Shown here piece by piece: positions 9,201 through 15,200 of a DNA stretch of 64,000 bases. The DNA is from Protula sp. h YS-2021. Its lineage: Eukaryota > Annelida > Polychaeta > Sabellida > Serpulidae. A model generated the notes under the pieces. It worked only from the letters and a program-made list of their open reading frames with translations, was not told the DNA's origin and ran no database searches. The translations under genes and the position numbers were made by a program. Location: assembly GCA_949752745.1 (NCBI GenBank), contig OX457028.1:27306645-27370644 (forward strand). Direction: 5' to 3'. The first letter of the stretch is position 1, and each line of letters begins with the position of its first letter.

Positions 9201-12200
9201 TTTCACAGTGGTTAATTTATTGGATCGCCATTGTCACAGTGGTTATTTTGTCGGGTCGCCATTGTCACAGTGGTTATTTTGTCGGATCGCCATTGTCACA
9301 GTGGTTATTTTATCGGATCGCTATTGTCACAGTGGTTATTTTGTCGGGTCGCCATTGTCACAGTGGTTATTTTGTCGGGTCGCCATTGTCACAGTGGTTA
9401 TTTTATCGGATCGCCATTGTCACAGTGGTTATTTTATCGGATCGCCATTGTCACAGTGGTTATTTTATCGGATCGCCATTGTCACAGTGATTATTTTGTC
9501 GGGTCGCCATTGTCACAGTGGTTATTTTGTCGGGTCGCCATTGTCACTGTGGTTGTTTTGTCGGATCGCCGTTGGTACGAATTACGGAGGGCTTTCTGTC
9601 GCTTTTTTTCTCTTCCAGGATGATATTGAGTACAGTGTTTCGGCGGAGAACTCCGGAGAAGGGGCTCTGGAGTACTTCTATGTACTGCCGGAGTCTGGTA
9701 TCGTCATGTTGGCCAGACCCCTCACTGACACCGATAGGACCGATTTCAGAGTATGCTCTTTTCTTAACAAAAAACAAACAAACAAACATAATCAACAAAA
9801 ATCAATAAAAAAAACAAGGGAAAAGGAAGAAAAAGTAATGAAAAAGGACATTATTTATTAATAGATTATGTTAATAGTTTTATTTCTTGGAATAAACTAT
9901 CTTCCATTTAAGTGGACCAATGAGTGATTTAACGAAAAAAAATATGCGGCGGGGTGGAGCAGTTTCTCGAATAGCTGAAAAGTTGACTTCTTAAAATTCC
10001 ATGCTCATTTGCATGGCGGTCATTGCCAATCACAGAACTGCAAAGATCTTCGCGGATATATTTCAATCCGTGTGATTTTTGTAAATGAAGATCGTTTTTT
10101 TAGGTGAATGTGTATGCTACGGACTCCGGTTTTCCGGCCCAGAATAGTTCCAGCGATGCTCGCGTAACAATCCGCGTCATTCGGAACCGGCAAACTCCTC
10201 GGTTCGATCGCGAATCGTACTCCGAACGTGTCGAAGAAACGGTGGAAGTCGGAACGCAAGTTATCGATCTGAATGCCAACGACGGAGATAACACGGTAAG
10301 CGTATGCCACTCCTAAGTCCAACCGGCGTAGGGGCAGAATCTATGTTTCTTTTTTTTTTGTGTTGTTTTTATTTTTTTGTGTATTTTCGTCGTTTTTTAT
10401 TTATGTTCTAGTCTATTTGGGAGTTTCAAATAGGCGGCACCCGCAAATCACCCTGTTTTTTTAGCCCTGGGGCACAAGAACCATGCATCTTTTCGTTTTC
10501 AGTGTCTTTCGGTTGTATATAGCACAAATATGCGTGTGTAGATTATCTATTTAAAATTCATAGCATTGTAGATAGTTTATGTCATAAAAAACGTGTGTAG
10601 TTTGTAGTAGCTGCTTGGTTTATTTTCGCAGTAATAACAGCAGTTATTGAAGCATAGTTTACAGCAAGTAGATTTCGTCCCATTTACTCGCGGTTTTTTC
10701 TTTGTATTTTGCTTTATTATTGTTTTATTATTGTTTTTACCAAAGCTATATGTTGATTGTAGATATGATTAGTTGTTCTTCTTCTTTAAAAAAAAACAAA
10801 AACAAAAACAAAAAAAAAAACAAAAAAAAACGATGTCCTTGACCTTTTTTTTGACTTCCTTCAAAGTACTCTGGAGTTCTTCTGTGACAATTTCCCCGGT
10901 TCTCTAAAATGTTTTTTTTTTGGTCCCACCTAATTGTTTTGTCTCTTAATGTATTGACTAAAATAGGCCCGATGAGATTGATTGCGAAGACTGTCCACGG
11001 CTTCTAAATAAGAAGATAAAAAAAGTCATAGATTGTGAAACATAAAATGTGATGGTTTAATCAGCCTTAATTTTATTACCCGATAAATGCCAAAAAAGTA
11101 GTAAAATCGAGGATTCTGTTCATTGTATTCTGTAACGTTATTCGCGAATATCCCTCATTTCTGCTCAAATTAGAAATAAAAACCTACTGATTAAAAACGC
11201 ATCCGATTAATTCATATTGTTCATTACTGTATACTGATTATTGCACAACTACTTCTTTATTTATTTATTTATTTATTTTTTGCACGGTGTTAATACACTA
11301 CTGTAATTATAGTGAGTAGTATATACTGACACTTTTTGTTAATGTATGTGTGTGTATCAGGAGGAGAACGGAGATGAGGTGTGTATAGGCTTCTTGCTTA
11401 TGCTTTTTAAAGTTACATTCACGCTTGTTAAAAAAAGGGAAACCTAAATATATACCAGTCCCTTATTCTACCCTTGTGCAATCTCGGCAGTCGCCCTCTG
11501 GTGAGTTTGTGAAGAACTCGTCTCTGACAGAATTAATAAATTAAAATAATAGATTTCAATGTTCAGATGTCACTAAGTCATCAAAATCTCAACGCTATGA
11601 TAATATATGCGATCGACCGCGTGTCTGTCGGTCTGTCTGTCGGTCTGTCGGTCGGTCTGTCATCAAGAGCTTGTTAACACGATAACTTAAAAACTCCTGC
11701 AAGGAGTAGCTTCTATGGGAACAAACACAGATCGGTATTGTAAATGGGCCAGGTTCGTCCAAGGAAAATGGACCAGCTGGACTTCGAAAATTTCAGCTCT
11801 TGATTGACTATTGATGGCCGTGTTTAACTGATGGGGTGCCTGTGGGGAATATGTGGGCTTGCACACAGCTCTAGTTTGAAGACCAGTGCCTTAGGGGTGT
11901 GAGACACAATCCAGCGCTGTACCTTTAAGAGCGTTTCTTTCAGGTTCCAGGCACTTATACCAAGTTATGCTTTCCTTCACCACATAAACGATAAAAATTA
12001 CCTTGTTAAAAAATATGTATAAAAAGAGCGTATGTGTATTTGGAAGCATGTTTGTTACCATGAAATTATAGAAATGGTCAGCACTCGGAGCCAGGTTCGT
12101 TAACAGATATCTGTTATTGAGGGTAGAATTCGTTTATTCAGCCTTTTTATTTTGTTGCAAGCTTCAATAATTATATATATATATGAACAATGTTTGGATG

Positions 12201-15200
12201 GTTATTTTTTCCACTGTTTGTTTTAAGTATAGTGAAGTTGAAAAATGTTTTCTTTTTCTCGTTTATTTTATGAGGACACGTTTGCTTATATGTACATGTT
12301 ATTTTTAAATAATATTCTGCTTTTAATGGAGCGATCCCATTTCCGAGAAAAGAAAGTGTTTTAAAGTAACTCTGTGTGCACATCTTCGATTGGTACCAGT
12401 GTAATACTGGTGTCCTCGCATTTGCACTTTATGCGATCGGTAAACAGTCGATTGATTTACGGTGATGAGTACAGGAATCTTCACAAGTTCCTTAAGCAAT
12501 GTTGTCTTTGTTGAAATATAAAAATCAATTTATTCATTTAAATTTTTTAAAAATTAATTTTTATGCATAAAACGCGTCAATGTTTAGTTATTTACCCAAC
12601 TTTGCTTTAAAACATTTAGGACACAAACAAAGACCAGGTGTGTATAAGGCTTAGCTTAAGCTTTTTCTGAAAATTCTTTGACGAGTCGATTTTATCACAG
12701 ACCATTTTGTGTGAGCTGGGGTGCTAGTACCATCTTATTTTTTTTCGGTCAAGAAGTTTATGTTTGGATTAAGGTAGAATATATATATATATAGTGCTTT
12801 GCTGAAAGAATAATAGAGAAAATTCGAGAATTGTGGTGTCTAAGGAGTTGTTTCGATGCAAACAACTGGGCTCCTTACGAGCCGAAAAGTAGTGACACAC
12901 GTCTCAGATAAAAGTCAAATCAATGTAAATTATCGAGAAGTGGTCTCATCATGAACACGGCAGTTTCAGTCGGTGCTCAATTGTATTGCCGAAGGCCAGT
13001 ATTTTGAAATGATAAAAGCCTATTGATGAGTATGTGTTCAAGATTATAAATTGCGGGTAATTTATAATTTTAAAAAGGAAGAAAATAGCGAGATTGATGA
13101 GGTGTGTATACAGCTTAGCTTTTGCTTTTCACAAATGTGCATTTCATTTGGTTTGGATTGTTAACATGGTTGGGTATCAGTGGCCAGAGCAGTAAATGGT
13201 ATATTACAGTGGCCCCCAATGTGCGAAGTCATGCAAGGATGAATTTGACAAGCACAATGGCTGATATGTAAGAGCAATATAAAGAAAACGAAGCATATAC
13301 TGATACTGATTAAGCCAGAAAGAGAGAGAGAGAGAGAGAGAGAGAGAGAGAGAGAGAGAGAGAGGCAGAGAAAGAATGAGAGTGCGTGTGTGTGAGAGAG
13401 AGAGAGAGAATGAGAGTGAGTGAGAAAGTGCGTGAGAGAGAGAGAGAGAGAGAGAGAGTGAGTGAGTGAGTGAGTGAGTGAGTAAAAGATTGAAAACCAG
13501 TTACATTCGGATCAATATTGTAACTAACTCCTTGTCGTAGCAAAACAATTTATGCTGCCCGTCAATCCCCATTGCAGTCTAGAAAAAGTTTTCTTTTGAA
13601 TAAAATAGGAAGAGAAACAAAGTGAAGAAGACGAGGTTTGTATAGCTATAAGAAGAAAGCTTAGCTAACAGGGAGCAGCCGTGTCTACCTCCAAATGAAT
13701 AATTTAGCTGGCAAAAAAGAAACCTTTTGGCAGAAATGACACGGGTGGCATTCCGTTTCGATTATTCGACAGTCGGAATGAACGTGTCTTGGCTTGCATA
13801 ACGAATATTGCTATGGCAGCGCATTTCTGAATAAAACCAAATTGTTCGGATCTTTTAATGTATTTCACTTTTGAAAAAAGGGTTTGATTCCGTGTCCCCT
13901 AATTAAAATTTTATTGTAATCCCGTTTCAGCTTTAAGAAATTGTTTAATCAGCGCAATCCTTTTTCGTATTTTTTTGGTTAAAATACAACAAAGGGTTTT
14001 TTTTTCTAAATTTTAACGAATAGATTCGACATTTCATCAGTGAATACCTGGAAACGGATTGGTGTGTTACTAATTCAAAATACAAGAAACGTCACACCCT
14101 GTATTAAGAGCAAGGTTGTGTTGTGGAATAAGTCTTAAAATGTCGGTATCTGTTAAAAAAAACAACGGTCAGTGACGTATTCCGACACAAGGTTAGACCG
14201 TGACGTGATTTTGTTCCTGTTCTCATTGCAGACCAGTCACACTTTTTTGTTTGAAAACCTAAAATAAACATATATCTATATATAAATTTATTTTTTGTTT
14301 GATTAACCATTGGGAACTCTTCGACAAGTTGTTTACAAAATAACTTCTTTAAATACCAGTAAGCAACCGGCTTATATTGGCTTTGCAGAGCGAATCTATC
14401 AGACAAGATACTCTATTTTTTCCAGCCACCTTTTAACCAGCTACGATACAGGTTGGTAACCGAGGGCGAGAGCACGGTGGCATCGTTCTTTGAAGTAGAT
14501 CCAGATTCTGGCGCCATCCGGACCATACAGGATCTCCGGCTGGAGAATGTTGAATTCTATTACGTAAGTTGCTCAGAACTTTAACAACAATAACAACAAA
14601 CTTAACTAGAGTGTATTTAAAAGGTGAAAGCCACAGCAATTATAGTTTAGTTGTTACAAAAAGTCAAATCAGCCTGTACTATACAAGCCTGCAGGGATGA
14701 CATCTAAAAGAATATGTTAGGACTATAAAACAAGTTCAGTTTTTAGTATTAGGGGTCAGTGTTGGTGTAAGGGCTTGAGCGAAGCTTTAGGGTCAGATGT
14801 GAGATAATGGTCAGTTTACAACCAGGTAAAACATTAAATGGATCCTTCAAACTTCACCTTAACGCGAACTCCTTACAGCTACAAGTGATCGTAGAAGATG
14901 GCGGCATACCTCCCCGCTCTGACGTCACCACCGTGACGCTGGAGATACTGCGCAATTTCAACAGGCCCGTTTTCGACGCGGCCCAGTATAATGCCTCGGT
15001 ACTGGAGACACAGAGCATTGGTGAGACAATCCTGGAGGCCAGAGCTGTCGATCGCGACGAAAAGGTGTGACCTTTGACTGAAATATATAATGGGCAATGA
15101 CATCAAGTGTTATCCAATCAGAGTTGCTAAAATTTTGCGTAGGGCGTTCTGATTGGACAACAGTTGATGACGTCACACTATTCGAACAGGCCCAATGTGT

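What the first reader, a model, noticed from the sequence alone, without database searches (positions are those of the whole stretch)
11361..13635. Array of four in-phase acidic microexons in one intron of the cadherin gene
Seen: four segments of 18, 18, 24 and 27 nt, each bounded by AG and GT, each a multiple of three, encoding EENGDE, DTNKDQ, EENSEIDE and EEKQSEEDE. They lie in the longest intron of this part of the gene. Exon 13 joins exon 14 in phase without them, and any one or any set also fits. Inference: they are tandem-duplicated alternative microexons that vary the charge and length of a loop just after the AxDxD calcium motif of one repeat. Regulated microexons are known in animals; a tuned array in a cadherin calcium loop would be new to me.
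Basis: partly seen in the sequence, partly recalled or inferred. Interest (0 to 1): 0.88.

Follow-up and report, generated by a model that had tools for sequence, protein, structure and literature searches.

The report
Four duplicated microexons in cadherin gene
One long intron of a giant cell-adhesion (cadherin) gene, probably from a mollusc, holds four mutually similar, in-frame, exon-like segments of 18 to 27 bases that are likely spliced in optionally and would add short, mostly acidic peptides to one loop of the protein; no RNA data were available to show it.

Summary
Segments of 18, 18, 24 and 27 nt (EENGDE, DTNKDQ, EENSEIDE, EEKQSEEDE), each bounded by AG and GT, lie between two cadherin exons that already join in phase. 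They look like one duplicated family: near-identical 5' splice sites (GTGTGTATA, once GTTTGTATA) and similar sequence for about 30 nt behind them, while the surrounding intron is no more alike than background. None of 4000 shuffles of the intron matched this. All 4 have an in-phase open acceptor within 36 nt, against 5 of 37 other strong intronic donors. Donors are strong; three of four acceptors are weak, and better out-of-phase acceptors lie nearby. Direct exon 13-14 splicing gives the loop length of relatives: none of 32 hand-picked mollusc and brachiopod-type relatives, nor a 48%-identical fragment, shows an insert at the junction. My reading: optional cassette microexons, probably born by duplication, that would vary length and charge of one EC loop, working like the PTP-delta splice inserts. 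Not shown: any transcript, which copies combine, any effect on calcium or binding. A decoy-5'-splice-site array is the main rival. New variant of a known kind, not a new kind.

The parts
10104..10295 (+). exon 13: cadherin repeat exon ending in the AxDxD motif, ...NANDGDNT, phase 0
11361..11378 (+). microexon 1, 18 nt, EENGDE; acceptor of median strength, strong donor GAG|GTGTGTATA
11388..11408 (+). GCTT-containing stretch downstream of microexon 1
12620..12637 (+). microexon 2, 18 nt, DTNKDQ; weak acceptor, strong donor CAG|GTGTGTATA
12649..12665 (+). GCTT-rich stretch downstream of microexon 2 (GCTTAGCTTAAGCTTTT)
13078..13101 (+). microexon 3, 24 nt, EENSEIDE; weakest acceptor, strong donor GAG|GTGTGTATA
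13113..13129 (+). GCTT-rich stretch downstream of microexon 3 (GCTTAGCTTTTGCTTTT)
13609..13635 (+). microexon 4, 27 nt, EEKQSEEDE; weak acceptor, donor GAG|GTTTGTATA of middling strength
13645..13666 (+). diverged GCTT-containing stretch downstream of microexon 4
14426..14563 (+). exon 14: next part of the same cadherin repeat, PPFNQLRYRL..., phase 0, strong acceptor

Best explanation
The four segments are likely duplicated copies of one in-frame microexon in a giant mollusc-type cadherin gene, and they are likely optional cassette exons that would insert 6 to 9 mostly acidic residues into the loop after the AxDxD motif of one cadherin repeat. Shown: the reading frame, the splice-site-like ends, the mutual similarity beyond chance, and that direct exon 13-14 splicing gives the loop length of the relatives looked at. 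Inferred: a short exon with its 5' splice site and about 30 nt of downstream intron was copied within the intron; the introns then drifted while exon body, donor and downstream stretch were kept. Strong donors with mostly weak acceptors would make inclusion depend on a cell-type-specific activator at the 3' splice site, perhaps helped by the GCTT-containing stretch. Skipping all four would give the default protein; including one or more would lengthen and charge a loop on the repeat and so change binding or linker stiffness, as the PTP-delta mini-exons do for their receptor.
For: Frame and ends read directly. One family: 0 of 4000 shuffles match; of 6 window matches to GAKGTKTGTATA with up to 1 mismatch, 4 are these donors. 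Similarity at +10..+40 past the donor exceeds that of random intron segments (P=0.006) and is absent at +41..+103 and upstream of the acceptor (P=0.28). In-phase open acceptor within 36 nt: 4 of 4 versus 5 of 37 other strong intronic donors (Fisher 0.0012); nearest adequate acceptor in phase and open: 4 of 4 versus 7 of 37. Length differences among copies (0, +6, +9 nt) are in frame; in copies 1, 3 and 4 variable columns fall 1, 1, 5 on codon positions one, two, three (P=0.013). Donor ranks 51, 45, 51, 35 of 62 from the weakest; acceptor ranks 32, 5, 4, 5 of 62; AG-free zones 41, 32, 35, 20 nt. Relatives show the uninserted loop. The junction maps between two strands in a model of the fragment P0227.
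Against: No transcript with any of the four was seen. None of 32 hand-picked relatives nor P0227 has an insert there, though gene models often miss microexons (recalled). Three acceptors are weak, and within 120 nt a better-scoring acceptor, out of phase or followed by a stop, exists for three of the four. What is best conserved is the 5' splice site and the stretch behind it, not the acceptor. With copy 2 included the codon-position bias is gone (3, 2, 5). The GCTT pattern taken from copies 2 and 3 is not found in copies 1 and 4 within 2 mismatches. Hallmarks of fly eMIC exons are not clearly met: UGC near the 3' splice site in 1 of 4 within 20 nt and 2 of 4 within 30, and donors are strong, not weak.
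Confidence: 0.62

Rival explanations
1. Decoy 5' splice sites: the conserved thing is an array of U1-binding sites inside a long intron (recursive splicing, protection from early polyadenylation, or splice-site competition); the peptides are incidental.
For: Donor and downstream stretch are the best conserved parts; acceptors are mostly weak and their upstream sequence is not conserved; better acceptors lie elsewhere for three copies.
Against: All 4 have an in-phase open acceptor close by against 5 of 37 other strong intronic donors; in-frame length differences; third-position bias in copies 1, 3, 4. Two other long gaps (3322 nt at 45881-49202 and 4201 nt at 57032-61232) carry no such family.
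Confidence: 0.2
2. Dead copies: remnants of an old duplication of an exon end, no longer used.
For: No relative looked at has an insert; tandem copies of exon ends with their 5' splice sites are common in this gene (6 of 14 arrays), so duplication at donors may be a local habit.
Against: The introns around the copies are no more alike than background while donor and 30 nt behind it are; all four frames are still open.
Confidence: 0.13
3. The acidity is a by-product: purine-rich GAR repeats are kept as exonic splicing enhancers, and the glutamates follow from them. This is compatible with the main reading.
For: Three of four begin GARGAR; purine-rich enhancers in small exons are recalled.
Against: Changes such as GAG/GAA, GAT/GAC and AAC/AAT keep the peptide; but GAR is kept too, so the two cannot be told apart on so few codons.
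Confidence: 0.3
4. Mutually exclusive choice by competing RNA pairing, as in Dscam exon clusters (recalled), with the GCTT stretches as selectors.
For: Copies carry similar stretches behind the donor.
Against: No common pairing site beyond shuffles: best summed energy -65.0 against minima of -58.8 to -70.2 in 7 shuffles, 2 of them lower.
Confidence: 0.08

Closest known systems
PTP-delta mini-exon peptides meA (3 or 6 residues, or both joined as 9) and meB (4 residues), PMC4423211 (passages read)
   Same: Short in-frame spliced inserts in an adhesion-receptor ectodomain; two used singly or joined; length and sequence of the insert decide partner binding, or the insert acts as an adjustable linker
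   Different: Ig domain and Ig2-Ig3 linker, vertebrate synapse, shown by experiment; here four similar copies in a cadherin loop, only predicted
Arthropod N-cadherin mutually exclusive exons and 12-nt micro exon 7a' (PMC2655722, abstract and one section read)
   Same: Alternative exons, and a microexon, in a long-ectodomain invertebrate cadherin
   Different: Whole-exon substitutions in pairs with transcripts shown; here small optional insertions in one intron, in a different cadherin family
RPS24 run of three consecutive microexons of 3, 18 and 22 nt (PMC11162997, passages read)
   Same: Several microexons in one interval, combined in different ways
   Different: Ribosomal protein; one is not a multiple of three; the passages do not call them duplicates
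Schistosome micro-exon genes (PMC4350168, passages read)
   Same: Very small symmetrical exons that allow splicing to give proteins differing by a few residues
   Different: There most of the coding region is microexons in secreted proteins; here four in one intron of a giant adhesion gene
Tandem duplicated exon substitution events (PMC9741552, start of abstract in listing and passages read)
   Same: Exon duplication as source of alternative exons
   Different: Substitution of homologous exons; here the default form would have none of them

Membership tests
Regulated animal microexon | Exon of about 3-30 nt, multiple of three, open | tested here: met
   18, 18, 24, 27 nt, open
Regulated animal microexon | Included in some transcripts and skipped in others | not testable with these tools
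   no RNA reads; relatives looked at show only the uninserted form
Regulated animal microexon | Weak 3' splice site, long AG-free zone, strong donor (mammalian type; recalled) | tested here: inconclusive
   3 of 4 acceptors weak, zones 41, 32, 35, 20 nt, donors strong or middling; zones were not compared with all exons of the gene, only with exons 13 and 14 (13 and 18 nt)
eMIC (Srrm) neural microexon programme | UGC motif close to the 3' splice site (fly; PMC8797185, passages) | tested here: inconclusive
   TGC within 40 nt at none, -17, -26, -36
eMIC (Srrm) neural microexon programme | Weak 5' splice site (fly; PMC8797185, passages) | tested here: not met
   donor ranks 51, 45, 51, 35 of 62 from the weakest; the passage says mammalian microexons differ in this
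eMIC (Srrm) neural microexon programme | Loss of inclusion without the eMIC domain | not testable with these tools
   needs knockdown
Tandem duplicated exons | Similar exon copies side by side | tested here: met
Tandem duplicated exons (mutually exclusive) | One and only one copy per transcript | not testable with these tools
   no reads; all copies are symmetrical so frame does not force exclusion
Dscam-type competing RNA pairing | Docking site pairing with each selector (recalled) | tested here: not met
Cadherin | EC repeats, Pfam PF00028 | tested here: met
   two long exons; exons 13-15; fold of the relative P0227
Canonical calcium-binding EC linker | DxNDN linker (recalled) | tested here: not met
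   0 of 39 pattern matches, 34 with R[ND]; three of the 39 (GDDxAP) are not linkers

The most novel reading that the evidence does not exclude
A combinatorial charge-and-length rheostat: up to 16 splice forms of one cadherin loop, from no insert to 29 extra residues, built by copying one acidic microexon next to an AxDxD site whose partner linker has lost its canonical acidic ligands, so that splicing restores or tunes metal binding and stiffness of one joint in a giant adhesion molecule.
Probability: 0.12. Interest if true: 0.82.

Novelty: new variant of a known kind. Interest (0 to 1): 0.52.

Why it matters
If used, this would be a compact example of how one microexon is multiplied into a set of graded inserts, and would make cadherin joint tuning by splicing directly testable. 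It also suggests that such arrays can be found from genome sequence alone, by looking for families of donors with in-phase acceptors close upstream.

Tried and rejected
Docking-site model: no pairing site above shuffles (a first, larger version timed out without output). Further copies: two other one-mismatch matches to the donor pattern exist in the window (43167 on -, 50424 on +); the + one is not among the in-phase strong-donor candidates, and neither was studied further. No second family in the other gaps except minisatellites and 2-copy families. RNA families at gathering thresholds and tRNAs: none. Best-acceptor rule: only 1 of 4 in-phase acceptors is the best within 120 nt, so I rest on the control instead; its two thresholds (donor 7.25, acceptor 0.75) were set to just admit the weakest family member, which favours my reading. 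Codon-position test: significant for copies 1, 3, 4 only, on a hand alignment of 6 codons. GCTT pattern: matches copies 2 and 3 only, within 2 mismatches. NCAM microexon precedent: recalled; my search did not bring it up. Species: not determined. Novelty searches: (open-licence library only) listed no microexon array in a cadherin loop.
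Full report
What the window is. From 64 to at least 57031 (perhaps 61337) the + strand reads as one gene of cadherin repeats (Pfam PF00028 in the two long exons tested). Each repeat is usually split in two exons: one from the previous repeat's end through the linker to the AxDxD motif, one from there to the end of the repeat. My model allowed phase-0 introns only; the joined reading stays in cadherin homology, so this fits. The model has 46 'A' and 43 'B' units, some of them pieces of broken exons, so about 40 repeats; the gene runs off the left end and may run off the right. 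The named relatives with the best scores are mostly mollusc proteins called protocadherin Fat 4-like or similar (Haliotis rubra, Elysia, Solemya, Tegillarca, Saccostrea and others), with a brachiopod (Lingula) further down, at 27-37% identity (120 rows listed of 272 and of 209). The species is probably a mollusc but is not determined.

The observation. An unguided repeat search lists their donor regions as one four-copy family. Aligned without gaps on the donor, mean pairwise identity is 0.53 in the last 15 exon bases, 0.69 in the first 15 intron bases and 0.42 in the next 15; further on it scatters between 0.18 and 0.40. Aligned on the acceptor it is 0.52 in the first 15 exon bases, 0.43 in the last 15 intron bases, and 0.17 to 0.42 upstream. 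With gaps allowed, +10 to +40 is more alike than random intron segments (P=0.006); +41 to +72, +72 to +103 and the stretch before the acceptor are not (P 0.83, 0.64, 0.28); the last 15 exon bases are marginal (P=0.046). A scan for families of in-phase candidate microexons found this set as the only family of four or more in 74 gaps that is not a minisatellite. In 4000 shuffles, 14 gave a family of four and none reached the observed similarity.

Exons or only donors? The donors are as strong as those of the gene's own exons (ranks 51, 45, 51, 35 of 62 from the weakest), whereas three acceptors are among the weakest (ranks 5, 4, 5 of 62; microexon 1 ranks 32). For three copies a better-scoring acceptor lies within 120 nt, out of phase or followed by a stop. 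This is the strongest point against. Against it stands a control: of 37 other strong intronic donors outside repeat arrays, 5 have an in-phase, open acceptor scoring at least 0.75 within 36 nt, against 4 of 4 here (Fisher 0.0012); with the nearest adequate acceptor it is 7 of 37. The thresholds were set by the weakest family member. The five others are scattered and not acidic. The copies differ in length by 0, 6 and 9 nt relative to the shortest, all in frame. In copies 1, 3 and 4 the variable columns fall 1, 1 and 5 on codon positions one, two and three (P=0.013); adding copy 2 removes the bias (3, 2, 5).

Relatives. I aligned 32 relatives, picked by hand from the listed rows of the two long protein searches, to exons 7-20 of the model; all 32 cover the exon 13-14 junction and none has an insertion of more than one residue there. 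The register of tandem repeats is uncertain at this identity. A third search, with the microexon 1 peptide included, returned 10 proteins; the best, P0227 (JGI, 315 residues on a 1084-nt contig, 48% identity over 84% of the query), is very probably an ortholog fragment and reads DSDQQGPFSEVYY where the window's direct splice reads DGDNTPPFNQLRY, the same length. As its coding stretch runs unbroken over several of the window's exon boundaries it is probably a cDNA (inferred). So skipping probably gives the ancestral loop, and the microexons are an addition. In an AlphaFold2 model of P0227 (mean pLDDT 89.6, pTM 0.63, 15 sequences) the equivalent junction, residues 219/220, falls between strands 207-210 and 225-230, in a cadherin fold (460 PDB matches at E up to 0.001, best CELSR1 EC4-7). 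I did not model the inserted form.

Calcium. AxDxD-like motifs are kept (44 matches), but linkers read RNxNxP: 0 of 39 pattern matches are DxNDN and 34 hold R[ND]; three of the 39 are not linkers. DRE is nearly absent (2 matches). That DxNDN, DRE and AxDxD are calcium motifs is recalled. By motif the neighbouring calcium site is degenerate, so a calcium effect is possible but not to be assumed.

Mechanism. I favour optional cassette exons controlled at weak 3' splice sites. The GCTT-containing stretch behind the donors may be a protein-binding element; which protein is unknown, and the pattern taken from copies 2 and 3 is not met by copies 1 and 4 within 2 mismatches. The hallmarks of fly eMIC exons are not clearly met: UGC is not enriched and donors are not weak (hallmarks from passages of PMC8797185). 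A docking-site model finds no support. Purine-rich enhancers could explain part of the acidity.

Known relatives of the idea. PTP-delta meA/meB is the closest working parallel (PMC4423211, passages). Insect N-cadherin has mutually exclusive exons and a 12-nt micro exon (PMC2655722, abstract and one section). RPS24 has three consecutive microexons (PMC11162997, passages). Schistosome micro-exon genes show symmetrical small exons giving protein variants (PMC4350168, passages). My searches for microexon arrays in cadherins or molluscs listed nothing alike, in an open-licence library only.

Verdict.

Noticed in passing
222-789, 18345-18593, 19148-19941, 32496-32832, 33879-34320, 52056-52296: Six of 14 minisatellite arrays (period 15-150, TRF score 120 or more, merged by hand) begin inside the 3' end of an exon and repeat it together with its 5' splice site (for example 33-nt units with DEDRR|gtaagt); none of the 14 straddles a 3' splice site in the model. 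Three of the six periods (33, 57, 57) are divisible by three.; the exon end at 19158 was read by eye.
   Followed up: partly
222-369: The 33-nt exon-end array stays open in the coding frame for about three and a half units past the model's exon end, so use of later copies of the donor would add repeats of VNARDEDRRVS.
   Followed up: no
19038-24370: Several cadherin exons read in broken pieces in more than one frame, downstream of a 200-base N gap (18601-18800); probably assembly or sequencing errors, though decay is not excluded..
   Followed up: no
whole window: This giant cadherin has RNxNxP linkers in place of DxNDNxP while keeping AxDxD-like motifs; linker calcium binding may be lost or different..
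   Followed up: partly
3182-4006 and 40512-41393: Two long exons hold two and a half to three cadherin repeats without introns, unlike the split exons of most of the gene; possibly intron loss..
   Followed up: no
10281-10295 and 11367-11378: The end of exon 13 (GACGGAGATAACACG) and microexon 1 (AACGGAGATGAG) share ACGGAGAT, so the microexon may have been copied from the exon 13 end; suggestive only, read by eye.
   Followed up: no
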